A stretch of 64,000 nucleotides of DNA from positions 3,534,001 to 3,598,000 of the forward strand of contig JAMSLZ010000002.1 in assembly GCA_026027325.1 (NCBI GenBank). Direction: 5' to 3'. Source of the DNA: Actinomucor elegans (taxonomy: Eukaryota; Mucoromycota; Mucoromycetes; Mucorales; Mucoraceae). A program made the position numbers and the translations under genes. The notes beneath the pieces are model-generated. The model made no database searches and was not told where the DNA came from. It saw nothing but the letters and a program-made list of their open reading frames with translations. Positions 4,330 to 25,758 of this stretch are shown piece by piece (position 1 is the first letter of the stretch; every line of letters starts with the position of its first letter).

Positions 4330-5008
4330 GGATTGGGTTTTACAACCTCTGACCACCTATTTGTCAACTAAGGTAGTGTGGACTGAATTCAAGCCAAAGC
4401 ATCTCAGGAACCATTATCAACAAGATATTGCGATCGATATCCATTTTTCCAAGTGCGATCCAAGCTTTCTGGTCTTGCTCAATGTATCCTCAAGCAAGAA
4501 CTATTTACTTTAGATCCACAACAAGCTGCATCCCAACTCGCAATTTTGGCACTGTTTCCTCCAATGTATGCCCTGTATGTGACAACAGTATAGACAGCCT
4601 CAGACATTTTCTAGTTGATTGTGCTTCTAAATGGAAACTCTGGTCCGAAGTTCTGACTCACTACTTTCCCTACTCTCCATTTCACCGGAAATGTTATATA
4701 GCTCACTACGTTTCCTCCATGTACCCAATGGCGTTCGTAAGATACCATTGCATTTTACTATCATCTCTACAACCCTGTGGAAACTTTGGAATTTCTATTG
4801 GGGAATGGCACGCATAGATGCCCACCCAATTAAGCTCACAACTCTACACCATCTTTTTCCCCAAATTATTTCCCTAACAGATAGGTTGATCCCTAACCTA
4901 ATATCATATATCTTGTCTTCCTCTACTCCGTTCATTAAGTTTCACCACTCAGCGATGTGTAACTTTTAAAATATTTATCAATAAATATTAATTTACAAAA
5001 AAAAAAAA
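4330..5008 (+). pseudogene. 5'-truncated non-LTR (LINE) retrotransposon fragment
   Basis: This is the C-terminal end of a LINE ORF2 spread over several frames, so it carries frameshifts. Around 4331-4430 one frame reads VVWTEFKPKHLRNHYQQ. The frame at 4428 reads CPVCDNSIDSLRHFLVDC followed by KWKLWSEVL, the CCHC-type zinc-binding region typical of reverse transcriptase C-termini. After about 4730 coding moves to another frame with ISTTLWKLWNFYW. The coding remnant ends near 4969 and a poly(A) tail of 12 nt follows at 4997-5008, as expected for a LINE 3' end. The reverse transcriptase catalytic core is missing. No clear target-site duplication could be identified. It is dead and is not expected to encode a functional protein. 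Confidence 0.65.
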
Positions 5009-6494: not shown

Positions 6495-6726
6495 CAGTGA
6501 TTTATGTTTGAAATTCAGGATTTGGAAATAGAATTCAGGATTTTTATTCAGCCAATCAAGAATTCCTTTAGTACATTCATAACTTCTTGTTACCGTTCAA
6601 TTTTTTTGTGAAATATTTCTAATGCTTGTACAGCAAAAGATACCAAATATATTGTTGTAATGCTTATATACTATTCATGTTTAAACACTTGGGAAAAAAA
6701 AATAGTGAAAGTGACGGATCCATCCT
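6495..6726 (+). repeat. Left terminal inverted repeat of element 1
   Basis: It matches the reverse complement of 11060-11334 almost base for base, for example in GAATTCAGGATTTTTATTCA, AAGATACCAAATATATTG and the GTGACGGAT(C/T)CA(T/C)CCTC inner edge. Differences are mainly substitutions plus an extra A/T-tract segment in the right copy. Confidence 0.88.
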
Positions 6727-6727
6727 C

Positions 6728-7690
6728 TACAGATTTTCACTGTAACTGTTTTTGCTGCACCTTCAATACGGCCAGCTATAATTTTCTTCTTTGTTAGGGG
6801 TGTCTTGAGGATTCCTTGCTTGACTTCTGCCCATTATTCTTTAATAGGGTTCAATATTGGTGATTAAGGGAGTAAGAATAAGGCAGTATGCCCATGATTA
6901 CGGATTACTTGGACTTCAGGTGGTTTATGAATTGCGGCATTGTCCATCACAATATACATATTATGTAAACCGAGTTTATTTCGTATAACCGATATTTTTT
7001 CGACGAACAGTAAAAAATGGCCTCGAGTTAGTCCCATGAAGTAGGCCTCTCTTGATACCAGCCATCTTCTGATTTTTTTTTTCGACTATTTGATTTTGGA
7101 ACTTGTTGAGAAATTGCAGTCAATCCGTACACGGATAGGCAACCCAAAAAACTCAAATTGATACCTTTGGTCTGAACTTTCACTTTTGCAAGGATTCCCT
7201 TCTTGAACCAGGCTACAGGAGGCACCATGTTCTTTAATTCATTCTCATCCACAAAAATGCATTTTCTTTTAAAATCAATCTTCTTTTCCTCAATATATCC
7301 AACACACTGTTTTCATTGCTTCTTTTTGTTTTTTAAAAAAAAGGGTTCCAATTAAAAGATTTTCACACTTCTCTTTTGTTTTTGAAACAATATTAGTTTG
7401 TCGATTAAACTTTTATATCTTAATATAAGCTTTATGTTTACAATTCTAGCTTGATGCTTTTTAGTTTTTGCTGGCAATTTTTGTGATATATATATTCCAA
7501 ACGATTTATTACTTTTTTCTTTCTTAAATGAATCAAGTTTTCCTTTTTAAATATATTATTTAGTTATTTATCATTCATAAAAATAAATAGAATCAACTGT
7601 TTTTGGCTTTTTATTTCATAAGCATTGTCTACAAAATATTCTTCACAGTCTTACTTCCAAATTTCAATATCCTGGGAGAGCGAATTCCGA
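6728..7690 (-). pseudogene. Broken mariner-type DDE transposase of element 1
   Basis: The minus strand reads, N- to C-terminal, a decayed helix-turn-helix part (about 7690-7330, EYFVDNAYEIKSQKQ then several stops). Then comes the first catalytic Asp in CIFVDENELKNMV (about 7220-7265) and the block KVKVQTKGINLSFLG. The second Asp follows in MYIVMDNAAIHKPPEVQV (about 6905-6960). A frameshift near 6870 leads to SPILNPIKE, a stop, then WAEVKQGILKTPL. Canonical members read NPIE followed by an aromatic or Trp, so the third catalytic acid appears replaced by Lys and followed by a stop. The reading frame ends inside the left inverted repeat (GWIRHFHYFFF). It is dead through several frameshifts and stops and loss of the catalytic Glu. 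The family call rests on motif order and spacing. Confidence 0.78.
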
Positions 7691-7962
7691 TGATGGATAA
7701 TTAACTTGAAAATTTAGCATGTAATAACATACCAATTATAAATTATCTACATTAGAAACCCGATAAAAATACTCTAAAGCACTATGACTGGAAATCCTGC
7801 CATATCCTTTTCTTCGCTGCATTTACTGCCAAATTACGTGTACAAATAGTAAAAACATGAGAACAATTAGGAGTACCACAGAAAATCACTGGCAAAAAAA
7901 AAAAACGCGTTAGAAAAAACAGACTCTGAATATCTCTTCCTTTCAAACTTTTAACTTTCATA

Positions 7963-9392
7963 ATGTCAGACAGGGAGAATCAAATTGAACAAGATACTCA
8001 AGCTTCAATAGCAAGGAGAAAAGCCCTTACCAAACAGTTCATAGCTTATGAATTTGAACATGAAACCGGAAAACAAGTAGCAAAAATAAAGAAGAAGTTG
8101 AACACATCTGCTAGCAGCCCATTAAATAATGTCGTTATCGATTGCGATGAAATGTTCGTTCAGGGCGCAAACACTTCTGTAGGATCTATTATCAAAACTG
8201 AAGCTGTCAATCTTCGCGAGAATTACCATACACTCAATGCAAACAATAAGGCAATAGTTTCTTTAGGACTTAATTCTACCTTGGATATTAGCTTCACATA
8301 TCCCAATTCTCAATCTACTCTTTTCACTAGTCAGCAATGGGACGAGCTGAAAAGAAAATACAAGCCAATAGATTATGATACAAACCTTTACGCTTACATG
8401 AGACCAATGCTTCAACCGATATTCAAAGCATATAATAAAAGAAGTACAAATAAGACCAACTGGCTCAAAATGTACAGGGAAGTAAAGTCATTAGAAAGGA
8501 TCTATGACCATGAACTCAATCCAAAAAACAGCGACATCTCCTTCTGTGTATATTTCATGCTACAAGTTTTACTCCTACTGAAGCACCAATCTGGCTTGTT
8601 TGATTCACACATTGATAGTTCCGAATGGGACTTTATAGTCAAGTTCTGGGGACCTATCACCGAGAGATTGTTCTACGAGTCTCAGCTACGACTCAAGTGG
8701 CAGGGTTTTTTTTATGCTAACGAAGCAGCGAACTTAAGTTTTTTTTTCTTAGGGGTGACACCCATTTGACTTTACATGATACCATTTCTGACGCTTCTTT
8801 CAAGATTGATTTGCGAATCATTGATGATAAATTAAAACAAAGATACAATACAGAAAATGACATAGCAGTTATGGAGGCAGCCGAGGAAGATGCTGGTAAC
8901 GCCAAATTTATTTTCGATAGATGCAAACTATCTATTGAAAACAAGATGATAATTGACAAGTATTTGATGAACGGTGTGGCTATAAGCTCTGTTGATTCGT
9001 TACAAATCTCTGGTCTTCAAGTGTTTTTCGTAAACACATGTCTTGAAGAACCTGGCCTTTATGTCACCAAAGAACTTCACCTTTATGTCACCAAAGAACT
9101 TCACCATCATAGTATTACTGAATCTCTTAAAAACCTCGTAACATACATGGATCTGGCAGTACGACTCTTGTGTTTTCGTGACAACTGTATTACCAAGAGC
9201 AACACGTATGATGAGCATTTGATCAATGAACAAGACAAGAAAAGGTCGAATAAGCGGTCAGTAGATGAACTACAAAACGAGGAATTGACTGCTAAGCAAG
9301 AATCGATTAGAGGAACTTGGAATCCTCCTCGCAGTAGCAAAACCCCTCCCCCCGCGGCACCAAAGAATCTTTGTAAAACAAAAAATTCATAA
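7963..9392 (+). CDS. Cargo gene 1, uncharacterised KID...EIA family protein
   Basis: Two exons, 7963..8699 and 8753..9392, give 458 aa. The intron only fits as GC-AG (GCAGGG...TTCTTAG, branch-like GCTAAC). That join gives LRLKW|GDTHLTLHDT in one frame, while a GT donor two or three bases away breaks the frame or drops the Trp. The N-terminal half is charged (SIARRKALTKQFIAYEF). The C-terminal half has WGPITERLF, SFKIDLRIID, NTENDIAVMEAAEED and FDRCKLSIENK, then a basic low-complexity tail. The order G(D/E)-KID-(D/E)IA-E-DR.K matches the gene at 16448-18414, including the intron site. A D...E-x pattern could be a degenerate PD-(D/E)XK core, but the lysine is not in the usual place; this is inference. 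A 24-bp tandem duplication repeats LYVTKELH. The gene starts 270 nt upstream of, and divergent from, the dead transposase. It is essentially open, so it has been maintained longer than the transposase. Confidence 0.7.
9057..9104 (+). repeat. In-frame 24-bp tandem duplication
   Basis: Two identical 24-nt units (9057-9080 and 9081-9104) inside cargo gene 1 repeat LYVTKELH. The perfect identity suggests a recent slip or duplication. Confidence 0.92.
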
Positions 9393-9928
9393 TTACTTTA
9401 TTTTCTTTTAATTATCATCAGATAGCTATTCTAAGTTTAATTTTCTTTTCATCAACATACTTCATGCAAAAGAAATGAAGATGCAATAGACATCCCTATT
9501 TTTCAGATCATCTGTGCAAAGAAGTATTATTCCAGTACCAAGTTATGTAACAGTATTCTGTTACTAAAATTCATTAGAGAAGCAGGATGATATGCTATAA
9601 ATATTTTTAGATGTGCCTTTGTTTTTGTGAAAGAGAGATATGTTCAACGATGAATAAAAAAACAATAACTTTTATTAAAGTACATAAATGGGATGATTTA
9701 AAACTATAATTGAGAGTATGTAGATTTTGATTTCATTACCAAAAAATAGTGTACGTCAATCATTACAACTTGATAGCAACATTACTTAAATAAAAATAAA
9801 AAAGAGAAGAGCCACAGAAAAAGCCAAAGTTTAAAAAAACATTGTGAGTCCAACAAAGTCCTCAACTGCCAGAGGAGTTGACTAGCCATAAATTGCTTAA
9901 AGTGAACAGAGAGTTAGGAACACAGTCC

Positions 9929-10239
9929 CTTTTGCTTAAAGTATCAAACCTACCAAGTAATTTCTGTTATAAACAAGCAATAATGAAGCCAAATGCTATC
10001 ATCGACAAGTGATAATACCATGTACACCACACTTGACACATGAAGAGCAGAGATTCATATCCTTTCATACCGGCCAGTATAATCAGATAACGATAACAAT
10101 GGCTCATTTTAAACCATGAGTGCTAAGGATTCCTCAATACTGTCATTACTACCTACTTAGTCGACTCCATGAGTACTCATAAGCAGATGCAGTTTCTCTG
10201 TCCAACTGGAAGCATAGCCAGGCTTAAGCATGACAGAGG
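9929..10239 (+). repeat. 311-bp direct repeat, copy 1
   Basis: It begins at TTTTGCTTAAAGTATCAAAC and ends at CATGACAGAGG. It is nearly identical to 10309-10619, with only a handful of substitutions, and the offset is 380 nt. It lies inside element 1, downstream of the cargo gene. No open frame or known RNA structure was recognised. Confidence 0.9.
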
Positions 10240-10308
10240 GATCAGAGGCACAATAGCTCCAAAGAAAATCCAAGAGTTTACAATATACAATAGTTATTAA
10301 TATAATTC

Positions 10309-10619
10309 ATTTTGCTAAAAGTATCAAACCTACCAAGTAATTTCTGTTATAAACAAGCAATAATGAAGCCAAATGCTATCATCGACAAGTGATAATACCA
10401 TGTACACCACACTTGACACATGAAGAGCAGAGATTCATATCCTTTCATACCGGCCAGTATAATCAGATAACGATAACAATGGCTCATTTTAAACCATGAG
10501 TGCTAAGGATTCCTCAGTACTGTCATTACTACCTACTTAGTCGACTCCATGAGTACTCATAAGCAGATGCAGTTTCTCTGTCCAACTGGAAGCATAGCCA
10601 GGCTAAAGCATGACAGAGG
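10309..10619 (+). repeat. 311-bp direct repeat, copy 2
   Basis: Second copy of 9929-10239, separated from it by about 69 nt of unrelated sequence. Mismatches include TTAAA/TAAAA near the start and CTCAATACT/CTCAGTACT in the middle. Confidence 0.9.
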
Positions 10620-11059
10620 AAACCATGGATGTAAGAAATATGGAGGATCGAGCAAGTTCAGAACAAACAATTTCTAAGTTAATGTCCATTTGAAAGTAAT
10701 TAAACAAGGAGGGTAATACTACACATGCTGTAGTTTAGGAACACATTATGCTACCATGAGAAAAAAAAAGTCACGCTCGGAATATTGTGAAGCTGTGTCC
10801 TCTTCTGTTGAATCCTAAAAAAGTCTCCTTCTCTGATTAGTTTTCCTTTTGACACATTCTTACTAGAAACAACTTCAGAAACTCTTCATTAATAAGCTCT
10901 TTAATACTGGAACCTCCTAGTAGCCTTTGTATCTTCAGTAAAAGATACAAATAATTGCTTTCTAATTTCGTCTTCTTATTTATCAACTCAGCCAATAACA
11001 GGACTTTATTCTATCTCTCATCTTACTCTTATTTTTTGGAAAATAAAATGACTTTGCTG
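10620..11059 (-). other. Inner right part of element 1, possible coding debris
   Basis: No intact gene. On the minus strand around 10850-10990 a stop-free stretch reads LLAELINKKTKLESNYLYLLLK then KIQRLLGGSSIKELINEEF. This could be decayed coding sequence, but I do not recognise it. Confidence 0.3.
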
Positions 11060-11334
11060 AGGGTGAATCCGTCACTCACAATTTTTTTTTCCCAAGTGTT
11101 TAAGCATGAATAGTATATAAGCACTACAACAATATATTTGGTATCTTTTGCTGTACAAGCATTGGAAATATTTCAAACCCTTTTTTTTTTTTTTTTTTTG
11201 ATTGATATAGCAAAGAAAAAAAAATACTTGAATGGTAACAAGAAGTTATGAATGTACTAAAGGAATTCTTGATTGGCTGAATAAAAATCCTGAATTCTAT
11301 TTCCAAAATCCTGAATTTCAAACACAAATCATTG
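11060..11334 (-). repeat. Right terminal inverted repeat of element 1
   Basis: Reverse complement of 6495-6726. It is longer because it carries an inserted poly(T) tract at 11181-11199 and a short A-rich segment. The outer edge reads ...ACAAATCATTG followed by TG. Confidence 0.88.
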
Positions 11335-13092
11335 TGCTTTACCTTTTACTATTATTAAAGTGAAACAAGTAACTGCAGCCTCCTTTGTGGAGCGTCTTTT
11401 ATAATGAATTGAAAACAATCCCCGATCAAAATAAATACTTTTCGCTTATGTTTGATAGCCTTAGAAGCAAGCATTGACCATTACTATTAATACTGTGAAT
11501 TCCAGTGACTCTTAGCCGTATTTCTTTGCTGTTCATAGATTAAAGACGCAGCCTTTATCCTAATTTGAAAGCTGTATAATGCTTCTTTGGGGTTTACTCA
11601 ACTCATTACTTAATGCTTGTCGCTTTCTTTTCTTTCTATCCGTAAAACTGAGGCTTGAATTGATACATGCGTCTATCTATCTTGTACAGGTCATAGTTTG
11701 GGTTGTTGTGGTGCAATAGTTTCAAGATTAGAATGATGACAATTCCTGATCATGAGTATGAATGGCTTTTGTTATAGCATCATGTCATTTTATATCTAGT
11801 TGTTCGGATTGACATACGATGTTCATGTCGTTTGACGCAAAGCCCCAAGTAGACTATTCCTTTCATACAAGTGGTAACCGAGAGTTCACTTCCTGGTTTT
11901 ATCGAGTCAAATTAATTTTTTTTTCTCGATTAATCTGGAATCTATTTGGTGTTTAGAATCAAGTGTTACATGTTTTTTGCGATTCCACATGGAAATCGTA
12001 CATTTAAAAATGGCACAAAACAGCATGTACTTCATATAAACTGTTGTAATGAGCTACGTTTTTCTCGAACAATTGAATAGACATCATCGAGTATCATCCG
12101 TAAGGTTGTCTTTTTGTTGTAATAAGCTGAAGAGGATCATTGGTTTAAGAACACAATGTTATATTTGTGTAAGACAGTAAAAGGGACTCGATCCCTTTAA
12201 TATGGCTCCCGCAGTTCAAAATGTCTTTTTCTCTACTGAATATATATGGCTGTTCTTATCTCAGTGTGGAATAGGTATTTGTTTAAATACAGTTTGTTGT
12301 CCAATCATTGTGTAACATGGAGTGTTCGTTGTATTAGCATGTATACATCATCGTTCTACTTTGTCAATTAGTCTAAATAGTGATGGTACATCTCATCTCT
12401 TATTCAGCCTGATAGACTTGCATATCTAGTATCATGTTCTCAAGATGAACTAAAGTATCGATAGGTGCATAGCCTGGTTAGCCAAGGTGAAACTTGTATA
12501 GTATCACTTGCTAAAACAAGGCCTTTTTATATTGACAAATATATACAAACAAGACTCCAACATATAATGTAATTAAATCGTGACATAACTGTGAAACGTT
12601 AAACGGGTGGAATACCTTTGTCCGAAGTCCTACAAATGACTTGGTTACTGGTGCTATCTTTTTTGACGCGCACGGTCATTTCTGTGTTCTTGTAGCATTT
12701 TAATATTTGATTGGTCTGTCCTCGTTATTTTAGATAACGGTACAATGCTTTCGGTGGATGCAATGGCAATTATAGATTCATCGGCTTGTCTATTCAAAAG
12801 AACGAATCATGTAAAATGAATCAAAGCGTAAAAGGGTATAGGTATTATAGTTACACTAACGCCTTTTGTTATTATTCGGAATAGCTCAGGCCGCGATGTA
12901 TTGCACGAGAAACAACTATGTGTTCCCACATGATATAGGAGACTCAATATTCTTGATTGCGTTCACGAGGCACAAGCAGACATGCTTAACACGAAAACAA
13001 ACAAACAGTAAGATACGCGAAAAAGACGATCTTTTTTTTTTTTTTTTTTTCTTCTTTTTTTTCTTCTTTTTGATGGATGTGTCACTTTTTGG
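11335..13092. other. Intergenic, upstream of the Sel1-repeat gene
   Basis: I see no supportable gene in about 1.75 kb between element 1 and the Sel1 gene. The right edge has a pyrimidine-rich T/C tract at 13031-13070. Confidence 0.5.
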
Positions 13093-13099
13093 TATAAAA
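13093..13099 (+). promoter_or_regulatory. TATA box of the Sel1-repeat gene
   Basis: TATAAAA lies 37 nt upstream of the ATG at 13136, just after a T/C-rich tract. The position fits a core promoter with a very short 5' UTR. Confidence 0.5.
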
Positions 13100-13135
13100 A
13101 TACACTACTGTTCAATTACTTGTTCTTTACTTTAA

Positions 13136-15283
13136 ATGACTTCTTTATCTCACATACGACGCGTTTTTACAAAACTAAATCAAAAATATTTTCATCATCA
13201 GCAGAGGAGCATATCAAGGACATCATTTTCATCTTCATCATCTTCATCATCCACGTTAAATTTATTCAAGTTTCGACGAAATCGTACAACCTCTTGCAAT
13301 AGTAGCTCCTCTTCTCTGACAGATTGCTCTGCCGATGAGCTATTTGAAATAGCTGAACAGTGTTTATACGGCAACAATAATAAACCAAAAGACGAGAGTT
13401 TCGCCATACTTTGCCTGCAAGATGCAGCTCATAAAAACCATTCTGGAGCCCAAGCAGTGCTTGGTTTCTGTTACGAGTTTGGCATTGGAGTCCCGCTCGA
13501 CTTTCAACTGGCGGAACGCTATTATATTCTCTCTGTCAAAACAGCCCTCAGCACTTTAACAAATAAAACCAATTTTTCCCTCAATCAACTTGAACTGAGT
13601 GACGCAACCTTATTGGGCATGGCCCGTTTGTCATTTTTGAGAAAATATGGTCGTCCTGGAGTGCAAATTAATCGCGTCGAAGCCGAATATTGGGAGTCTA
13701 AGCTGCGTACAAGAGGCCCTAAAGCCATTGCCTGGTTGCAACGTCGTGCTCAGGAGGACCAGTGTGCTGCTAGTCAGTATTGTTTAGGCGTATGCTATCA
13801 TGATGGTATTGCAGTAGAAAAAGATGAGCAACAAGCTTTTTATTGGTACAAAACAAGTGCGGAACAGGGCAACTGTCGAGGTCAAGGGATCTTGGGATAC
13901 TGCTATGGCGAAGGATTTGGAACAACAAAATGCGAAAAAACCGCTTTAGCTTGGTATCGTCGCGCTGCTGTCAATGGAGAAACGGTAGCCATGTATAACA
14001 TTGGTTATTGTTATGAAGACGGCATCGGTGTTGCTCAGGATCATAAAGAAGCTGTAAGATGGTATACAAAGGCTGCTGAACTAGGCAACGCATTCGCCCA
14101 AAATTCACTCGGTTACTGCTACGAAGATGGCATTGGCATTGAACAAGACAAGTCGATGGCTGCTGCTTGGTATCGGAAATCAGCCGAGCAAGGCTACCCT
14201 TGGGCTCAATGCAATCTTGGTTACTGTTATCAGAATGGTATTGGTGCTGAAAAGGATACCATTGAAGGCGCTTATTGGTATGGACAAGCCGCACGTCAAG
14301 GTCATGCACGGGCACAGCATAATTTGGGCTTTTGTTATCAAAATGGCATTGGCGTCAGTAAGAACCTGGAGATGGCAGTAGCTTGGTACACTAAATCCGC
14401 CCAACAGGGCAATATGTTTGCTTTCCATTCGCTAGGCTACTGTTACCAGAATGGGTTAGGCGTTGAAGCAAATCCACGAGAGTCTGTGTACTGGTATCTC
14501 CGTAGTGCAGAGCATAATCACGCTCCTGCACAACTTTCTTTAGGCTTCTGTTTCCGTAATGGAATGGGTGTCGAAAAAAACGAGAAAGAAGCTGCCAAAT
14601 GGTTCAGACTATCTGCATTGCAAGGAAATCCTTTGGCACAAAACTCGTTGGGCTTTTGTTATGAAGAAGGCTTAGGATTAGAAAAGGACCCTAGACATGC
14701 AGTTTACTGGTACTTGAAAGCAGCCAGACAAGGCAACCCTTGGGCTCAATGCAATCTTGGTTTTTGTTATGCAAGCGGTATTGGTGTAGCCGAAGATGCA
14801 ACCAAAGCTGTATACTGGTACCAAAAGGCAAGTCAACAAAACCACGCTCGAGCCCTTGATAAATTGGGTATGCACCTTCAAACTGGCATTGGGTGTCGTC
14901 GTAACCTAGAAATGGCAGTGGAATACTTTAAGTTATCCGCTCAACAAGGTCAGGTGGCCGCACAATATCACTTGGCCTTGTGCTACGAGAAAGGCTTAGG
15001 TACTCCTATCAATCTCCAAGAAGCTATGACATGGTTTGAACGGGCTGCAACTGTAAGTTTAATAATCAAATTTGTTAGTTGAATATACTCATTTTAATTC
15101 AAATAGGCCGGCTGTAGAAATTCGTATGAACGCCTTCGTCAGTTACTGTTGCGTTATTGTCTGGAGAATGCTTCCGCTGCTGATATTATTCAAAGAGTCG
15201 ATAGTGGATCTGCGAATAGCTGGTCAACTAGTGAACATCTTCCATTAGGTTGGGTTTCCGGATTCGCTGCACCAGCTGCATAA
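13136..15283 (+). CDS. Sel1-repeat protein with about 13 repeats
   Basis: Two exons, 13136..15052 and 15107..15283, give 697 aa. The first ~60 residues (MTSLSHIRRVFTKL, then Ser-rich and Arg-rich) lack acidic residues and look like a mitochondrial presequence; that targeting is inference. From about residue 95 to 640 there are about 13 Sel1-type TPR-like repeats of 36 aa with the pattern A-x-LG-(Y/F)CY-x-(D/N)GIGV-x-KD-x-x-A-x-x-W-(Y/F)-x-x-A-A-x-QG. Sel1 repeats form alpha-helical solenoids that scaffold protein complexes, for example in ER-associated degradation (Hrd3/SEL1L) and chitin-synthase regulation, but this protein has no membrane segment or CaaX box linking it to either. The last intron interrupts the final repeat, and the C-terminus has no repeats. 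Two repeats share an identical DNA stretch (CCTTGGGCTCAATGCAATCT at about 14200 and 14740), a sign of recent duplication or conversion. Confidence 0.88.
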
Positions 15284-16028
15284 AGTTTATTTCATTGTTC
15301 CTTTTCTTTATTCATTTGCATTCTACTCTACATCCTCAAAGCATTTTTGCATTTTCTTGTACTATAACTCACACATACTAGATTATTCTTTTTTTCTTTA
15401 TACTAATACTGTTCACTGGAAGCTATAATAAAAAGTATTTAATATCTATTCTAAACTATTTATCGATATCATTAGCCCTTGATCCAATGTTTAAGTTCAA
15501 GTCAATAAAAATATTATCAAAAAGTTGCATGTGCAACAAATGTAATTTATGCAAAATTTTCTAGTGAAATACAAAGTTTGGACATATAGGTCCAAAACTC
15601 TTTAGAATGAAACCAAGGCAAATCTAATTATCTAAATCTGCAATTTTTAAAGAGGTTTAATGTAGATGTATTATCTTTTGAGTATAAAATACTAATCAAA
15701 TGCGGCATTAGGCCAAGATCGGTCGAGAAATCCACCTTAATCTAGATTACAGAAATGCATATATTTGACGATTCATTATTGGTAAACAAGTGAATTAACT
15801 GGATTATGTATACTAAAAAAAAAAAAAAAAAAAAAAAAAAAACTGTAACTGACTCTGAACATGGAATAGTCATATACAATACTGAACTGAGATCGATCGA
15901 TACATTATCAAACATCATGTATAATTTAATATATATCTCTAAAATTCAATATGTTCATAATAGTATAACCAATTAATCATTTTTTTTATATACTGGGGAC
16001 CACGTTAAACACGTAACAATTATCAATA
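15284..16028. other. Intergenic, one dispersed repeat copy
   Basis: It holds the 3' flank of the Sel1 gene, one copy of the dispersed repeat (15660-15735) and a poly(A) tract of about 26 nt at 15816-15841. No gene seen. Confidence 0.55.
15660..15735 (+). repeat. Dispersed repeat family D, copy 1
   Basis: One of the best copies. The core runs ATCAAATGCGGCATT then AGGCCAAGATCGGTCGAG, preceded by TGTAGATGTATTATC and GAGTATAAAATACTA. See the finding on family D. Confidence 0.7.
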
Positions 16029-16165
16029 TTTGACGTTTATAAAGAAAAAGGCCATATTATAGTTTAAAAACATGTTTACATGAGCAACTTACTATAAAAG
16101 CTAATGATTTGAAGTTTAGAATGACTAAAGAAGCCATAAAGATCACTAGCAAAAGTTCCTGTTTC
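16029..16165 (-). repeat. Left inverted end of element 2
   Basis: The reverse complement matches 23700-23826. Shared stretches include TATAATATGG(C/T)C, CTCATGTAAACAT/GCCCATGTAAACAT, and the coding tail GTTAGTGAT...AGTCATTCTAA. In this copy the frame on the minus strand reads ASDLYGFFSHSK-like sequence, i.e. the C-terminus of the same transposase family as at 23.7 kb. Confidence 0.72.
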
Positions 16166-16447
16166 TATCGATTACTATAATTTTTGTACGATGGAGTAGT
16201 TTTTATAAACTACTTTGATCGCTTTAGTTGGTTTAGGTATGTCAATAATAACCATTTCCTCAGGTGACTGCAACTTGTCATAACCCTTTTTGTTCGTTGC
16301 TGTTTCAAAAAAAAACAGTTTTCGGATCATATGTCTTGATCCCTTAAAAATAGGCGTTTTTCATTATTTTTCAAAAAAAAAGTTCGTCTAAATTCATCTA
16401 TAGTATTTGAATCTTTTTTTCTTCTTTATTCCTTTTCCCTCATAAAA

Positions 16448-18414
16448 ATGGACATTCTAAAAGAGTTTGCTAAAAAACACGAAAAAGTAAACATTCACGA
16501 CTTTTTCCGACGCGAATATGAAGACATCCACCTGCACAACACCCAGATTAACCTTCAAGACGAAAGCTGGGAGGGCCTTAGGAATTACTGGACGATGATT
16601 GTTGACGAATTTGTAATCACGTATCCTATAAAGAAAGTAAGTAAAGCCAAATAAAGCTATTCTGCACCCTTATACAGTATACTTATCAGCGATAATGTAT
16701 TTAACTATGAACAAAAGGTTATCAAGAATTTGTTTAAAATTGATTGGGAAGAACTATACAACATTTGCATAATAGTATGATTTTGAACTGAAAACAAAAA
16801 GCACCTCTCTAATATTTACTCATTATAGAACAAAAATAAGAAAAGACTCAGAAATTCCATTGTACAAGAGCATACAAGCTTGATTGATAATATTGCGAAT
16901 GAGGTACATATAAAGTTCAAAAACAAAGAAGTTGTAGGCATGCATCCTTCTTCCTTGTTGATAGTCTCAAGATCAAATTAAATCCCAAGTTTAACTGACT
17001 CTTTTTTCCTTATCAAAGAACCCTTTTTTAGTCGATTCTAAGCCTAGCCTTTGTAACATTGTCTATATAAGTAAAATAAAATCTGTAAAAGAAAACATGA
17101 AATATGAGCCAGTATTATCAAAACAAGAGTAGGTATCAAGTCAATTTAGGTAAATCAGCAGGACTAATATTCTTCTATAGTCTCTTATATTACAATATTC
17201 TAGATTTCGTTTCTAAAATTAAAGAAAATGGAACAAGACGTGCCCTTGGAGACAAGTACGATTTCTTTGAGAAAAACTACAAGATGGACTTTCATAAGAA
17301 CAAATTGATAGGAAATCTTATCAAGGATCTTTTCGAAGAAAAACATGTAGTAAGATTATGAGATAGTTTGTTACTTTCTGTTAACATAGCCTTTTTTTAT
17401 AGACCGACAACTTTAACCTCAAAAAAATTCTGAAGGCAAAAAAGAAAGAAATTAGAGACACTTCTGATGTTGATGAGATAAAGAAGACTTTGACAAAAAG
17501 AGTTATAAAGGCACTTAAAGTATAGTGAGTATTGATTTCTTTTCATTTATATTCCTGTTTAATAACACATAGCCTGAAAAAAGCCAACACCTCTTCGAAG
17601 AAGACATATACCGAAACATGAGTGAGGATGAATACACATATTTGTTTGTCAGACCATTGATTAAAATCGTTTTGAAGGATATCCAGTTTATAAGTATCAA
17701 GTGGTAAGTCAAATATTTTGAAATTTAGTATACACAGATTGATTTAATTCTTTCTAGTGGTGAACCCAACCTTCGCTGCGTTTCTAAAAGGCAAAACAAA
17801 AAATTATTTGATGAGGAAAGGAGAAGCATTGGACCCAAGATCGATATGATCTTCAGTCATAAAATATATGAGCAAGAAATAGCAATACTTGAGGTCAGCG
17901 GCCCCAACAACAGGATAAATAATAGTCACTTTCTGGAAGATAGAAACAAGACAGCAAAAAATTTGAAACATATTCTAAAGACAGTTATTGACTCCATCCC
18001 TCCCTGTTCAGCAGCAGTCATTAAAAGACTAAAGGTGTATGGTTTTCATTTATATGGTAAGTCTTCATATTACAGGCACAGCTCACTTGTAACTTATATT
18101 ACATTGTTTGATGTCTAGAAAATACTTTTTATGTATACAGCCTTTCAACACCAAACGCCAACAACTATATCTTTTCTTTGGAATATAAATTGCGAATTCC
18201 AATGAAAGCTAGTACCTTGGAGCAAAATAGCCCCAATTTTTTTTCGAAGCTTTGGACAATCAAAGACTTGTTTCTTAAAATGAATGATAATTTAAAGGAA
18301 GTGTACGAGAAAAGTTTGGAGTACAGCACAATCTCTTCTGATTCTGATTCCAATTCCAACTCATCATCCAGTCCTTCTCCTAAAAAAAAGCAAAGAACAA
18401 AAAAATCCCAATAA
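16448..18414 (+). CDS. Cargo gene 2, uncharacterised KID...EIA family protein
   Basis: I assemble nine exons: 16448..16636, 16718..16774, 16829..16903, 17019..17128, 17181..17349, 17403..17519, 17573..17703, 17758..18056, 18119..18414, 480 aa. All introns are GT-AG and all phases agree. The exon 5 donor could be 17346 instead of 17349. The N-terminal half is charged and shows no known domain. The C-terminal half has SIKC|GEPNLRC, GPKIDMIFSH, EQEIAILEVSGPNN, FLEDRNKTAKNLKH, TFYVYSLSTP and a Ser-rich, lysine-rich tail (SPSPKKKQRTKKSQ) that may be a nuclear localisation signal. The G(D/E)-KID-(D/E)IA-E-DR.K order and the phase-2 intron before the Gly match cargo gene 1. From memory, similar orphan families with an E-(T/V)-S-G motif are expanded in Mucorales. 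A restriction-endonuclease-like fold is possible but unproven. The frame is fully open, in contrast to the dead transposase in the same element. Confidence 0.75.
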
Positions 18415-21304
18415 CTGATTTTAATACATTTATCTTTAAAATTCACTATACCAAGTTTTAAGTGACGTTGAAAAGACTACATTCTTGTTTTCTCTTCTCT
18501 GTAGCTACATTTACTTACAGAACGGGCTTGGATATAACCATGGAAACTTGCCCCATATTCATGCAAACTGAAGTAATGCCTTTTATATTTTAGCCAAGAG
18601 CTGCAAATCATTAATATTCTAAGTTTTGATCTTTTATGTAACAAACAATAAATGTATTTGTAAACGAAAAGGCGCCTTTATGCCGTTTTATTTCAATGCT
18701 ACTAACTTGTTCGTGAATCCTCTTTCTTTTTGTTCTATTAAAAGCTTTAATGACACTATGGAAGTGCGTACTTTATTGCATTGTTCAATGTAGTTCATAT
18801 TCTTAATTTTGAAATACTAATATAAGAGGGGAAAAGGGTTCTGTTTTTGTCTTATTGATGGTATTCGGTATGCGGTTGATTCAGTTTATAAGGAATAGAG
18901 GAGAGAAATTTTCGTTCGAAAAACATTTAGGGAAGGTATACAAATTGTAAATAGTCTTGCGCAGAGCTTATAACTTTCTTGAATCTTCGAAGCGGATCAA
19001 GTGGCAATTCTTTTCAGCTACAGGTTAATCAACATGGGATTGGGATGGCTCTTCCCTCTAAAGATAATAACCATATTTCGGGCTCCGGTCCACCACGCTC
19101 AGCCAGACCTTAACTATGGTCTCGTATAGTTGCTACAACGAAATCATCACTATTCCATGAAGATCAAGTTACAATCAACCAAAAAACTGGTTATACCGCA
19201 CACAAGTCACTCACATATAGAAAATAATGCTCCACTGGTAGTGTTCTCTTTGATGTCACAATCCCTCCAGAATCTCAAAAAAATTTTTTAGTATTATCGC
19301 CAAGGCTTTCCCTAATTGTTGGGGGTGTAGCATTCCATATGGAACATAATAAGCGAAAAAGTTATTGAATTATACTTTCTAAGCGAAAAAGTCCACGCAA
19401 AAGCCCTAAAGAAAGGTTTGGTTTTCGAAAATAGTAAGACTATAATCTTACTTACTTCTTGAGAGTTATATGGAACATAAAGTGATTTCTACTACAAAGG
19501 GACTATAACAATTCGATCACGCTGAACAAGCGATTTGTTTATTAATGTAAAAGAAAAGACTCAGATCTCTATAGTGCACAACTTGAGATCTATTAAATAT
19601 TGTGTTATTATTGAATGCCATATTAGACGAACTGAGATCTTGTATCTTCGGGTTTCTGGTATTTTTCGCCAAATAAACGAAGTAGACTAAAAATTTCTAT
19701 ATCTATCTTGTCGCACATCCATTCTCTATTGAAGACAGTGAATGATCTTCCCAACTCAAGATATGCTGCTGCATTAAACTTACTATCTGCTATAGAATTG
19801 GAATTACCGATCAATGATGTGTAATTTTTCATTTCAGATCCATGTCCAATCAAACCCAAAACCTACACAGATCCTAGCCAAGAATAATTGATACATATGA
19901 TGAAAACGCCCAATGCATGAGATTTCCAACTTCAAATGATCCCTTAAGAAAGTTCCCGACACTTGGTAAATGTTTGCATACTAATTTGGAACGAGAAGTC
20001 CAAATGTTCCCGTTCAGTTTACAATGTGTTCCCGTCAACAAGATACATCTCCGGCCTGTGGGAGATATCACGCCTACTCCAGTCAGCTCAACTTACCAGC
20101 ATACCCTGAAAATAAATACCATTACCATCCAAGTGTATAGAAAAACAGTACTCTCAGCAACACCTACCAAATACTTCATCGTATCTAGGATAACAGCAAG
20201 CTCATAGCGTCTATTCTGGAAAGCAAAGTTCAATTTTTAAGCTAAGAACGCCTAGTATGATAAAGATCAATACCAGCCCGATGATGCACCGTCTCATTAG
20301 AGATAAGGTTGAATCACCCTACTTTCAAATCTTCTCAAGACAATCAACTCACACTACAGATCATATGTTTGTTACCCGTCAATGGATATGGCAGTTCTAG
20401 AAACGCACTCTTCAATATACCTATACTCTGGATCAAGCCCTTCTTATCCTAATCCCTAGACAGATTCTGATAGGATTATTCATTACATCTTTCTCTACGC
20501 AATACAGAACAACCCACTCTCAGATATATATGAAGTTCAGTGATCCCATAGCATACCACCTATCAAGACGTGTGACTATTACTAAATCAGTAAAAAGATT
20601 GGATTGAGCAAGGTAATCAGTCATACTAGGATAGTTAATAGTTTACAGAACAACATTTCTGAATATTCTATCTTAAACAGATGCTTTTGCGGTGAAATCC
20701 ACATATGGCACTCTGCATATATATTAAAAAACGGGTTCATTTAATCATCCATCACCTGAGGAACCTTGGATCACCACTTAATAATCAATTAAAGCAGAAT
20801 CGACACATTAAAAGGTCTCTGATTACTACTGAGATTATTTCCTTTGAAGTATAAATACAAGAGATACAAGCTAACCAGAATAACTGAACTCGCTTTAAAT
20901 CAATAAAACCCCATAAAACGATTCTAACTGATTTGCTCGCTTTGTATTCAACTTTTACCGCCTTTTTCACAAGGATTTTCGAAAATGTTTTAGTATTGTG
21001 CGGCATGTCAAATGTGAAAAGCAGTCTGTAGGATGAAGAAAGGGTTTTCTAATACATTTCAATAATATCAATGATATCTGCGAAGTCCAAGAATTACTGT
21101 ACAACTTATCTAAAGTGAGAGAAACAGAGCATATATATATATATAAAGACAAATGTCACATATTAATAAAATGCCTGTGTTGCAAAAAGTCAGGCTGGAA
21201 GGCTGGATTAAAGGACTTTTACCATAGTTATAGTTTTACAGATTCATCCATCATCATGGATAATCCCGATCCTAATCATATTTTTATCTGAAAGAAATTT
21301 GTTA
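18415..21304. other. Element 2 interior, decayed sequence without a clear gene
   Basis: Several short open frames exist here (for example 19623-19859 minus, MGLIGHGSEMKNYT..., and 19917-20207 plus, MRFPTSNDPLRKF...), but none has a recognisable domain. Stretches such as RCFCGEIHIWHSAYI near 20680 suggest old, broken coding sequence. I cannot assign it to a family. Confidence 0.4.
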
Positions 21305-22267
21305 GTATGGATATATTCACAGAGGACATACAACACCCTTAGAGAGCCAAACCGAACCAACAAGCTCAAGAAGAGTGATTCCGTCGTTTTGAATATGTAT
21401 GGATATATTCACAGAGGACATACAACACCCTTAGAGAGCCAAACCGAACCAACTAACTCAAGAAGAGTGATTCCGTCGTTTTGAATATGTATGGATATAT
21501 TCACAGAGGACATACAACACCCTTAAAGAGCCAAACCGAACCAACTAACTCAAGAAGAGTGATTCCGTCGTTTTGAATATGTATGGATATATTCACAGAG
21601 GACATACAACACCCTTAAAGAGTCAAACCGAACCAACAAGCTCAAGAAGAGTGATTCCGTCGTTTTGAATATGTATGGATATATTCACAGAGGACATACA
21701 ACACCCTTAGAGAGCCAAACCGAACCAACAAGCTCAAGAAGAGTGATTCCGTCGTTTTGAATATGTATGGATATATTCACAGAGGACATACAACACCCTT
21801 AAAGAGCCAAACCGAACCAACTAACTCAAGAAGAGTGATTCCGTCGTTTTGAATATGTATGGATATATTCACAGAGGACATACAACACCCTTAAAGAGCC
21901 AAACCGAACCAACAAGCTCAAGAAGAGTGATTCCGTCGTTTTGAATATGTATGGATATATTCACAGAGGACATACAACACCCTTAAAGAGTCAAACCGAA
22001 CCAACAAGCTCAAGAAGAGTGATTCCGTCGTTTTGAATATGTATGGATATATTCACAGAGGACATACAACACCCTTAAAGAGCCAAACCGAACCAACTAA
22101 CTCAAGAAGAGTGATTCCGTCGTTTTGAATATGTATGGATATATTCACAGAGGACATACAACACCCTTAGAGAGCCAAACCGAACCAACAAGCTCAAGAA
22201 GAGTGATTCCGTCGTTTTGAATATGTATGGATATATTCACAGAGGACATACAACACTCTTAAAGAGT
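21305..22267 (+). repeat. 92-bp minisatellite, 10 full copies plus one partial
   Basis: Units start at 21305, 21397, 21489, 21581, 21673, 21765, 21857, 21949, 22041, 22133 and 22225 (last one partial). Each starts GTATGGATATATTCACAGAG and ends GTCGTTTTGAATAT. Copies are about 97-100% identical and vary at only a few sites (CTTAGAG/CTTAAAG, GCC/GTC, CAAGCTC/TAACTC). The 92-nt period is not a multiple of three, so it is not a coding repeat. It has no spacer variation, so it is not a CRISPR array. Confidence 0.96.
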
Positions 22268-22582
22268 ATCAAGTAGGGTAAAATTATATTGATTCTACAA
22301 AAAACATTAGTAAGCAAAATATATAACACCATTTGAGAAATGAGCGGTCAAAAGACCAAGATATATATATATATATATATATAAACCTCATAATGACTTG
22401 TTTTTTTATCATTTTCCATTCTTTCATTCAACTTGGATAACAATGCTGTAAGGATACTTGTAGTTTATTGCAGTGAAATGAATGACGAACCTAATAATAG
22501 AACATGGGTGTAGCATTAATCAATTGAACAGCCTAGCTTTTCATCTCGTCAATTTCTAGGTAAGTCTTTCTGCTGTAAGAAC

Positions 22583-22621
<39 letters not shown>

Positions 22622-22989
22622 CTTCACATTATATGCCTTAATCATAGTTATGACGTCGACAAGGAAATTTTAATTTAATAGAATTTTTGTTTGACAAAAA
22701 AACTGACTTTAAAAGATCACTTCATAAAGTGGAAGTTCCGATGGAAACTTAGCTTTTTACTCAACCATTTGAGCTGCTTATGATGCTCATAAAACATGAG
22801 TAAAAACCAGACTTTGTGTGGATCGTTGTTCTAAATATTTAGCATTGTTTTTTTGGAGGTTAGACTATCTGATCTTGTGCCAGCATAAAATTTATGGATT
22901 CTCATTAAATATCTTGACTACATTATTATTTGGTATAACACTACTAATAAAGCTACTTGAAAGATTAATTTATTTTCCACGAAATTTAT
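22268..22989. other. Between the minisatellite and the dead transposase
   Basis: It contains a TA microsatellite (22361-22383) and a poly(A) tract of about 36 nt at 22584-22619. No gene seen; part may be the decayed 5' half of the adjacent transposase. Confidence 0.45.
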
Positions 22990-23783
22990 ACTGCTTTTCT
23001 ATAGATAGTGCTTCGAAAATTATTAAAAACGCTTACCTTGTACATATCAATGTTCAGAAAATCAGTGATATCAGGGTCACTAGATGATGATCTGCAATTA
23101 GTAGTAGACGATATGATGGAAGAATTAATTACTTAATTTGAGGATTTTAAGATATCTAAGTTACAATTCAACCAACACTTAAAAAACAATAGGTGCGCGA
23201 CAATAAAAAAGCCTACGTTTAAAGCTGAAGTGAGGAATTCTGTGGACAACATGCAAGACAGATATGAATAGTTTATGAAATGGAAGGATTCCAATCTTGA
23301 GCCAGATTCCACATTAATATAAAAATTCAACTAGGCTAGATCCTCAAGTGGAACTTGTGCTATAATAAAAACACCCAAAACTGAATCAGTAACATGTTAT
23401 TATCAGTAATATACACTTGTCCAGTATTCTTCTCATTGCTTTGAAGAAATCACCTCTGAAAAAAATTTAAACCAGCTCTCTAATTCAAAAAGGTTTCTAT
23501 ATTAATGTTTCAATTTACAGATTGCAACCTTTGAGACGAGAAATAAACAATAGAGATTACAGAGTGATATTTTTACTGCCTTACTCTCCTGAGGTAAACC
23601 CCATTCAGTAATTCTGGATGGTAGTTCAAGGGAAGCGCAAGCGTTATCGAATGGTGGCAGAAAAAGATTTATCGGGTGGACTTGCTGATGCTTGTAGCCA
23701 AGTTCTTGTTAGTGATTTTTATGACTTCTCTAGTCATTCTAACTGTCAAATCATTAACTTCTATAGTGAATCGCCCATGTAAA
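22990..23783 (+). pseudogene. Broken mariner-type DDE transposase of element 2
   Basis: The plus-strand frames show a decayed N-terminal part (ENAYLVHINVQKISDI-like, near 23020-23080), then DDLQLVVDDMMEELI and FEDFKISKLQFNQHLKNN. CATIKKPTFKAEVRNS and NMQDRYE.FMKWKDSNLEP follow, shifting frame. The C-terminus at 23560-23783 reads RDYRVIFLLPYSPEVNPIQ, a stop, FWMVVQGKRKRYRM, then CSQVLVSDFYDFSSHSN and a normal end. Canonical members read NPIE here, so the third catalytic acid is Gln followed by a stop. The region around the first two catalytic Asp residues is unrecognisable. The gene is dead. The reading end coincides with the right inverted repeat. Confidence 0.68.
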
Positions 23784-23826
23784 CATACATTTTAAATTAT
23801 AATATGGTCCTTTTATAAACGTCAAA
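23700..23826 (+). repeat. Right inverted end of element 2
   Basis: It matches the reverse complement of 16029-16165 and ends ATAAACGTCAAA followed by TA (23827-23828). Confidence 0.72.
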
Positions 23827-23884: not shown

Positions 23885-24458
23885 AATCGAATCCTTTTTG
23901 TCTATACCCGAGACTTTCTTTTGTGTTTACTGTGTTCTTGATTTCTTGATCTCAAGATCAGTAAACTTGCTGGTAAGTATCTTAACGGCATCTTGAGTAT
24001 AGATATCTGAGACATTATCGTAAAACTTAATAAAACATCGCCTATGTTCTTCCTACACCTGTGATTTCGGCTTGTTTTGTGTATTGGGTTTCTTTTCGAA
24101 ACTGAAAGCCTGAATCCTTTACTTAGTTTTTCCGTCAAGCATGAGCAGCATTTCCTTTGGCGCTTGCTTTAAGAGTTGCAATCTTAACTGACAGTAGGCA
24201 ATGAAATTTGTACTGAAAAAAAATGGTTCTTTTGTGCTAGAGCTCCTATGCCATATACTTGATTGAACGTTCTGCACTTAGTTTTACAGTGGTTTCGTTG
24301 GTGGGAGTCTTAACACTTTCTTCTAGGTGAGAATCAAGATTAAATAATTGCTTTAAAACATAAGAATCAGGGTTTTCAATAGCGTCCATTGCTTCGGCTC
24401 CACTCTCGTCGCGAATATTTTCTTTGCCGTCTTTCTTTAAGAATACCAATGATTCCAT
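23885..24458 (-). pseudogene. N-terminal half of another mariner-type transposase
   Basis: The minus strand opens with MESLVFLKKDGKENIRDESG and an intact frame of 70 codons (24458-24249), then frameshifts and stops. Further on come EEHRRCFIKFYDNVSDIYTQ, DAVKILTSKF and DLEIKKS (about 24070-23950), which resemble the second helix-turn-helix part of Mucorales mariner-type transposases. No catalytic DDE part follows; the fragment stops about 60 nt from the right edge of element 2. It is a truncated, dead copy of a different element. The family call rests on resemblance recalled from related transposases. Confidence 0.45.
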
Positions 24459-25758
24459 TTTTTTTTAGAAGTTGAAATTATTCCTTTCAAATCCGCGAAT
24501 TGAACTTCGAACAATCATTAAGGGGTTTCATTTTATATATATTTATATATAAAACTGTAGTAGTTAAAATAAAAACCAATCATACTTCAAATATACTTTT
24601 TATAAATGAACCCTCACCATCTTTCACTTTTATCAGAAGCTTGAATCACTTCTTAAATCAATTGACAAACCATAATGTAAGACACATATATTAAACCGTA
24701 TTTTAAACCATTTAGAATGCTAATAATAAAGTATACTTTCTTTTGAAAGTATAAATACAAGAAATACATGTTAGTTGGATATTAATCAAATTTTAAATTT
24801 TTATCACACATTTTTTTATATTAATAAAGCACCTAAGAAGACCTATCGTCGGTAGGATCCAATTGATGAAGGAAGCAAAAACAATCTAAACCCCCATTAT
24901 CGCCTTCTGGAGTTTCTGCTTCAAAATGGAGACAAAGGACTCACCACCTTGGGTCAGAAGATCGAGACTGGGACTGATAATCATAGGAAACTTGTTGGAA
25001 CAAATTTGATATTCGCGCAAAAGTCTATTCGATTATGAAGAACCACGCTGCTGCTCATAAATTGAAAAATTATACAACTTTTTCTTGTATAATATTTTTA
25101 AAAATATTTATAGCTGTTTCAATCTATGACAGCCAATAGAGCATGCTAAAAAAAAATAGATACAAAAATAATAAATGAAACCCTTAATATCTATAAAGAA
25201 ATATTTATAAAAGTTATATATCACTAAGTGGCGGGGCTTAATGAGTGGAGTAGAGGAAATAATGATGCAAGTAGGAGGAGATATATATGATATTAATCTG
25301 GAATGGGAGTAAGGAAAAAAGAATTTACGAGCGATTTTTAAGGTCAGGGACCAACCTATCTGTCAAGGAAATGATTTAAGGAAGGTGGTGTAGAGTGGAG
25401 AGTGTAGCTGTGCAGGTATCTAGATACGCTGTTCCCCAATGAAAATTTCTAAGCACTCATAGGGTGTTAGAGACGATTGTAAAACACAGTGATGTTTTAC
25501 GAGCGCCATTAGGTATATGAAGGAAACGTAGCGAGCTATATAATATAAGCTCTAATTATTGTATTTTCATTTACCAGTTAATTAGAGCTGTAAATTCACA
25601 TTCCGTTTTAAAAAGATAAGGTATAATGAATTTTAAATATGATAGAGATTTTAGTGGTAGTTTCGAACCCTGAAAATCAGCCTAAAGAACTTATTTTGCA
25701 TAGAAAAAAACGCGGAGTCAAACAAACGAGTATAACCTTTTTCCTTTAAATTAGACAC
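24459..25758. other. Intergenic, AT-rich, no gene seen
   Basis: Upstream region of the 25759 gene. No coding or repeat structure was recognised apart from A/T runs. Confidence 0.5.

What the first reader, a model, noticed from the sequence alone, without database searches (positions are those of the whole stretch)
7963..18414. Two mariner-like elements carry members of the same orphan gene family
The cargo genes at 7963-9392 (element 1) and 16448-18414 (element 2) sit in elements with unrelated terminal repeats. Both encode proteins of 458 and 480 aa with the same motif order in the C-terminal half: K(W/C)-G(D/E), then KIDL/KIDM, then (D/E)IA(V/I)(M/L)E, then F..DR.K. Both have a phase-2 intron directly before the Gly of G(D/E). 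Shared motif order and intron position make common origin likely. A fast-evolving gene family associated twice with enlarged mariner-like elements could be a cargo with a role in the element's life or a family repeatedly captured. The D...E pattern hints at a restriction-endonuclease-like fold, but the usual lysine is not seen; that part is inference.
Basis: partly seen in the sequence, partly recalled or inferred. Interest (0 to 1): 0.87.

Follow-up and report, generated by a model that had tools for sequence, protein, structure and literature searches.

The report
Nuclease-like cargo in fungal mariner transposons
A fast-changing family of proteins with the predicted fold of DNA-cutting restriction enzymes sits inside four different mariner-type jumping genes of one fungus, which suggests that these small transposons can carry, and may use, an accessory nuclease.

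Summary
Both cargo proteins belong to one Mucorales family: profile-profile E 4.6e-8 once divergent relatives are added, though narrow profiles gave only 0.018. They share a phase-2 intron before the Gly of G(D/E), also seen in three, perhaps four, further family genes. Elements 1 and 2 have unrelated inverted repeats and decayed Tc1/mariner transposases.

The genome holds at least 27 family loci. Of ten read in 10-kb context without regard to transposons, one lies inside strong repeats with a transposase (element 3). One more, picked because a transposase lay nearby, is a fourth element with 98%-identical arms. Elements 3 and 4 have related transposases, yet carry opposite branches of the family. 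Most loci read are not enclosed.

A confident model (pLDDT 84.6) shows a restriction-endonuclease-like core with D and E in place, the usual lysine replaced in 38 of 38, and a near-invariant D-x2-K-x5-K in the next helix. Mariner elements with restriction-type endonucleases are known from algal viruses (PMC3627910, passages), so this is a new variant of a known kind. Function is inferred.

The parts
6495..11334 (.). element 1, enlarged Tc1/mariner-type element, 4840 bp
   Evidence: inverted arms 279 columns, 80% identity, E 2e-59; one pair found in the genome; TA left, TG right (by eye)
6495..6727 (+). element 1 left terminal inverted repeat
11059..11334 (-). element 1 right terminal inverted repeat
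6700..7312 (-). decayed Tc1/mariner transposase of element 1 (stop-free piece 7028-7312; a piece with MDNAAIHK below 7028)
   Evidence: six-frame translation; weak DDE_3 match of a typed piece, E 0.002, below the Pfam cut-off; no match for piece 7028-7312
7963..8699 (+). cargo 1 exon 1
   Evidence: 27 relatives besides the window's own protein
8700..8752 (+). cargo 1 intron, phase 2, GC-AG donor inferred from relatives
8753..9392 (+). cargo 1 exon 2 with most of the restriction-endonuclease-like core
16029..23826 (.). element 2, enlarged Tc1/mariner-type element, 7798 bp, TA on both sides
   Evidence: inverted arms 127 columns, 82%, E 5e-25; one pair found in the genome; TA flanks (by eye)
16029..16152 (+). 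element 2 left terminal inverted repeat
23706..23826 (-). element 2 right terminal inverted repeat
16448..18414 (+). cargo 2 gene; surest exons 16448-16636, 16829-16903, 17403-17519, 17573-17703, 17758-18056, 18119-18414, others between
   Evidence: tblastn with P0029
17704..17757 (+). cargo 2 phase-2 intron before Gly of GE, same place as the cargo 1 intron
23450..23614 (+). C-terminal remnant of the element 2 transposase (by eye it runs on to about 23720)
   Evidence: matches the element 4 transposase piece, E 1.6e-4 in the genome search and 1e-6 locally

Best explanation
The two genes are members of one Mucorales family with a restriction-endonuclease-like fold, carried as accessory cargo inside enlarged Tc1/mariner-type elements. 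Shown here: the family, its predicted fold, the conserved acidic residues and helix lysines, and enclosure of four family members by transposon-type ends together with transposase remnants. Inferred: the protein cuts or nicks DNA with a metal site made of D261, E283, E217 and (D/E)244 (P0003 numbering), with the missing lysine supplied by K300 or K306 of the following helix; it helps the element to be kept or spread, for example by cutting target or empty sites or rival elements. Cargo modules of this superfamily are exchanged between related mariner elements.
Confidence: 0.5

Rival explanations
1. A host gene family that happens to be caught now and then between mariner ends. The gene has a host function and gives the element nothing.
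For: 9 of the 13 contexts read are not strongly enclosed; the C1:1616k copy is strongly conserved between this genome, Backusella and Mucor, with branches of 0.03 to 0.15. The surroundings of the copies in other species were not seen.
Against: Four elements carry members of one superfamily, and two elements with related transposases carry different branches of it. No control on what other cargo mariner elements carry here was possible.
Confidence: 0.3
2. A catalytically dead, nuclease-fold DNA-binding protein that helps the transposase recognise or pair the long ends, or a domesticated regulator.
For: Canonical lysine absent in 38 of 38; the highest structural rows are mitoribosomal proteins, not nucleases.
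Against: The most conserved positions of the whole family are charged ones at the expected site: D261 invariant, E283, D297, K300 and K306 at 90% or more, the pattern of an active site rather than of a scaffold.
Confidence: 0.13
3. No real association: transposons inserted around or next to family genes in repeat-rich DNA, and inverted repeats enclose them by chance.
For: Another mariner remnant abuts the right end of element 2 and a LINE-like repeat encloses both elements, so the region is repeat-rich; DDE_3 and RVT_1 proximity tests not significant; outside the window only 1 of 10 loci read without regard to transposons is strongly enclosed.
Against: Each of the four repeats encloses both the family gene and a transposase remnant; TA beside both ends in elements 2 and 4 (by eye); resamples never reach the scores.
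Confidence: 0.07

Closest known systems
[quoted passage not shown] passages seen)
   Same: Tc1/mariner transposase plus an extra endonuclease gene, in two cases of restriction-endonuclease type; related transposase ends with unlike 3' portions; described as single-copy; TA target sites
   Different: There: virus-borne, with a methyltransferase or Fanzor1 as third gene. Here: fungal chromosome, one recurring divergent nuclease-like family, intron-bearing genes, no Pfam match over a cut-off in the cargo scanned, no lysine
Fanzor1 in eukaryotic transposons, including Rhizopus, Phycomyces and Mucor MuDr-type elements (same paper, passages seen)
   Same: A nuclease-like family carried by transposons of different kinds in related fungi
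   Different: TnpB-type protein there; restriction-endonuclease-like fold here. One family protein, P0016, follows a MULE transposase domain in a single predicted protein
DrdV N-terminal part and other PD-(D/E)xK restriction enzymes
   Same: Core of alpha-beta-beta-beta-alpha-beta with D and E in the expected strands
   Different: No lysine after the E; 15% identity to DrdV; no methylase part
TnsA of Tn7 (recalled, no call)
   Same: A restriction-endonuclease-like partner of a transposase
   Different: Bacterial, partnership shown by experiment; here only a parallel

Membership tests
PD-(D/E)xK (restriction-endonuclease-like) superfamily | alpha-beta-beta-beta-alpha-beta core | tested here: met
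   [not shown]
PD-(D/E)xK (restriction-endonuclease-like) superfamily | Asp on strand 2 and Glu on strand 3 | tested here: met
   D261 39 of 39, E283 37 of 38
PD-(D/E)xK (restriction-endonuclease-like) superfamily | Lys two residues after that Glu | tested here: not met
   A, S or C in 38 of 38; so it is called nuclease-like, not a canonical PD-(D/E)xK enzyme
PD-(D/E)xK (restriction-endonuclease-like) superfamily | metal-dependent nuclease activity | not testable with these tools
   needs pure protein
Tc1/mariner elements | terminal inverted repeats | tested here: met
   four elements
Tc1/mariner elements | Tc1/mariner-type transposase, whole or decayed | tested here: met
   remnants in all four; the element 4 piece hits 91 places incl. 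elements 2 and 3; Pfam matches of single pieces are weak or absent, so the family name rests on motifs recognised by eye and on DDE_3 hits
Tc1/mariner elements | TA target-site duplication | tested here: inconclusive
   both sides in elements 2 and 4; left only in element 1; right end of element 3 unclear (by eye)
Tc1/mariner elements | mobility (empty sites, several near-identical copies) | tested here: inconclusive
   ends of elements 1 and 2 found as one pair each; element 4 ends have only 69-74% relatives elsewhere; these counts are lower bounds; empty sites not tested
Fanzor/TnpB | TnpB-type C-terminal motif and zinc finger | tested here: not met
   no such Pfam family among those listed for the 39 members of A8
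Crinkler (CRN) effectors | N-terminal CRN domain with NTPase and nuclease-like part | not tested
   considered from memory only; no such Pfam family among those listed

The most novel reading that the evidence does not exclude
Mucorales mariner elements form a two-module system: a transposase-and-ends module and an exchangeable nuclease module of one superfamily, whose active site has moved its lysine from strand 3 to the next helix, working with the transposase as TnsA works with TnsB.
Probability: 0.18. Interest if true: 0.87.

Novelty: new variant of a known kind. Interest (0 to 1): 0.65.

Why it matters
Mariner elements are held to be minimal, one-gene transposons (recalled). A recurring nuclease-like cargo in elements of about 4.5 to 8 kb would show a second way, besides Fanzor, in which eukaryotic DNA transposons pick up and keep nucleases, and it offers a family with an unusual active site for biochemical test. 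It also gives annotators a lead for a set of 'hypothetical proteins' in Rhizopus, Mucor and relatives.

Tried and rejected
The first structure job (A1, first sequence P0001) gave a poor model, pLDDT 58.8; that database protein lacks a stretch after KLSIEK, and the model was not used. Scans of viral and genome contigs with divergent alignments could not be run; a scan of viral contigs with A1 had 128 pattern matches but no relative. Foldseek against viral models found nothing below E 0.08. A PDB sequence search gave one row at E 0.47. Weak enclosing repeats at L064 (44.0 bits) and L058 (38.3 bits), each above its own 60 resamples, and a mariner HTH match beside the gene in L063 (E 5e-5) were seen but not counted as elements. 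A possible fifth element at C12:2701343-2706732, a family gene 4 kb from an element-4-type transposase and end, could not be read. Proximity test: lists copied by hand; 23 of 27 family loci used, those on contigs of known length, the four on C5 (two), C3 and C9 dropped, 58 of 91 rows kept after merging neighbours, only rows on the ten contigs used; all source lists are capped. Element 1's own transposase is in none of the lists, so it counts as a miss. The positive result (5 of 23 near element-4-type transposases, background 3.0%, P 5e-4) uses a list made with element 4's own transposase; without that locus it is 4 of 22, P 0.004 at 10 kb, and 2 of 22, P 0.06 at 6 kb. Random control regions were drawn but could not be fetched, so the background for enclosing repeats is resampled sequence and the rest of the window.
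Full report
What was checked. The window is a stretch of a 36.5 Mb genome in 27 contigs. Database relatives of the cargo that bear an organism name are from Mucorales genera (order recalled); no call named the species of the window.

Cargo 1. The gene at 7963-9392 reads as 458 aa in two exons. A search of 5.8 billion proteins gave 28 hits at E <= 0.001, one of them the window's own exon 1 (P0002). Of the other 27, 19 bear names (Rhizopus, Mucor, Helicostylum, Blakeslea, Cokeromyces) and 8 do not; the best has 61% identity over the whole length. Relatives read LRLKWGD at the exon joint, which puts the intron at 8700-8752 with a GC-AG donor. Fragments P0024 and P0028 end at or soon after the same KW, as unspliced predictions would.

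Cargo 2. The gene at 16448-18414 has at least seven exons, and the 474-aa Rhizopus stolonifer relative P0029 (68% identity) shows further short ones; nearly its whole length is matched in pieces. Three relatives came up.

Common origin. With narrow profiles (20 and 3 sequences) the comparison was not significant, E 0.018, though the alignment put the C-terminal motifs in register. Searches of the window's own genome with single members brought in divergent relatives, and one gene, at C27:730k, is hit from both families (P0001 E 8.7e-10, P0029 E 1.1e-6). With profiles of 17 and 7 sequences hhalign gives E 4.6e-8 and probability 94.9%. The domain alone scores 64.6, against a best of 18.6 in 60 column shuffles and 16.1 reversed. 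The phase-2 intron before Gly is present at the same place in C27:1490k, C22:2026k and C21:3185k, and with a less clear donor in C1:501k, so in both families. The genes in L056-L060 and L066 read through this place. The domain tree of 26 sequences parts the two families at 99/99.

The elements. Element 1 (6495-11334) and element 2 (16029-23826) have arms of 279 columns at 80% and 127 columns at 82%, unrelated to each other, each found as one pair in the genome (such searches are lower bounds). Element 2 has TA on both sides; element 1 has TA on the left and TG on the right (by eye). Transposase remnants lie at the left end of element 1 on the minus strand and at the right end of element 2 on the plus strand. 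In the whole window 8 inverted pairs of 40 columns or more reach E 0.01; elements 1 and 2 are the first and third, and the second is a repeat beside a LINE-like frame (named by eye) that encloses both.

Beyond the window. Six genome searches gave 27 merged family loci at E <= 1e-3, the window's two included; the tool calls its counts lower bounds. Contexts of 10 kb were read for ten loci outside the window, chosen for gene quality, with the DDE_3 list already in view but not used for the choice. One of the ten, L056 (C27:726000-735999), lies inside a strong repeat: a 613-aa frame enclosed by 44-column arms at 95%, followed, on the other strand, by two overlapping frames of a Tc1/mariner transposase. 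It scores 59.7 bits; the best resample in any of the 13 contexts was 38.3. Of the other nine, L063 has a mariner HTH match (E 5e-5) about 200 bp from the gene but no repeat; L064 and L058 have weak repeats (44.0 and 38.3 bits, 0 of 60 own resamples as high); L057 and L065 are marginal (2 and 1 of 60 as high); L059, L060, L061 and L062 have nothing beyond chance (6 to 60 of 60). One more context, L066 (C21:1686000-1694500), was chosen because a DDE_3 hit lay about 3 kb from a family hit. It holds arms of 659 columns at 98.3%, a family-2-type gene and a transposase on the same strand, and TA next to both ends. The arms take in the start of the transposase frame. Its transposase frame seems to lack the stretch with the second catalytic Asp (by eye; motif recalled).

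Related elements, different cargo. The transposase pieces of L056 and L066 are 53-65% identical over their best-aligned parts, and the L066 end matches the L056 right end at 69% over query 73-659. Their first bases look alike by eye (CCACCAGTGCCAAATGGCAG and CCGCCAGTACCAAACAGCGG), but blastn of the left ends alone gave no match. L056 carries a family-1 gene and L066 a family-2 gene, in opposite orientation to the transposase. The four carriers need 4 changes on the tree, at least 3 forced, which is also what random labels give (mean 3.9); the L066 cargo is a long branch, so its place is unsure. Of the 5 other DNA relatives of the L066 end, 2 have a family gene within 6 kb: L056 itself, already known, and C12:2701343, which has the same order and strand as L066 but could not be read (P 8e-4 under uniform scatter of 28 loci). 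The other three gave no family hit in the searches made.

Tests that speak against a general rule. Family loci are not nearer to listed DDE_3 hits (2 of 23 within 10 kb, background 6.7%) nor to listed reverse transcriptases (2 of 23, 4.5%). They are nearer to element-4-type transposases (5 of 23, background 3.0%, P 5e-4), but that list was made with one of the elements; without it 4 of 22, P 0.004, at 10 kb and 2 of 22, P 0.06, at 6 kb. The background is uniform scatter, which does not allow for clustering of repeats.

How it may work. Most likely an accessory nuclease of the element; cleavage, target and benefit are inferred. Open cargo frames beside broken transposases in elements 1 and 3 fit selection on the cargo, by host use or by mobilisation in trans, but no rate test was done. 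A conserved copy without an enclosing repeat (C1:1616k, with orthologues in Backusella and Mucor saturninus) shows that at least one branch looks like a stable chromosomal gene.

What is known. Bao and Jurka 2013 (PMC3627910; passages seen) describe mariner elements of algal viruses that carry a transposase, an endonuclease (GIY-YIG, REBASE putative restriction enzyme, EcoRII type) and a methyltransferase or Fanzor1, with shared transposase ends and different 3' portions, and Fanzor1 in MuDr-type elements of Rhizopus, Phycomyces and Mucor. The Rhizopus oryzae genome paper (PMC2699053; passages seen) reports 3.6% mariner DNA; the passages seen mention no cargo. Searches for this family or for such cargo in Mucorales transposons showed no title or abstract start that describes it: searches gave listings, whose other papers were not read; (the last with four locus tags) gave none. 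P0016 of Rhizopus delemar joins a MULE transposase domain and a family protein in one predicted protein, which may be a gene-model fusion or a further transposon association.

Verdict. Observation confirmed; interpretation supported in origin, fold and in two further elements, open in enrichment and role. Novelty: a new variant of a known kind, accessory nuclease cargo of mariner elements.

Noticed in passing
window 21213-22432: tandem array with a 92-bp period, inner copies 97-99% alike, inside element 2
   Followed up: no
window 9912-10591: two direct copies of at least 300 nt, 97% alike, 380 bp apart, inside element 1 behind the cargo gene
   Followed up: no
window 4691-4991 and 25184-25546: inverted pair (245 columns at 73%, plus 75 at 80%) beside a LINE-like frame (by eye) that encloses both elements and the gene between them
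   Followed up: partly
window 23939-24100: match to a mariner transposase N-terminus on the minus strand, E 2e-7, just outside the right end of element 2, so element 2 may have landed in or beside an older mariner
   Followed up: partly
window 13136-15283: open gene with Sel1-like repeats (named by eye) between the two elements
   Followed up: no
L060 3973-5733: family-2 gene without an enclosing repeat, with close orthologues in Backusella (P0032) and Mucor saturninus (P0033): a conserved chromosomal copy
   Followed up: partly
G000 C12:2701343-2706732: family gene 4 kb from an element-4-type transposase and end, same order and strand as element 4; a possible fifth element, not read
   Followed up: partly
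P0016 (Rhizopus delemar): predicted protein with a MULE transposase domain directly in front of a family-1 protein
   Followed up: partly
[not shown]
   Followed up: no
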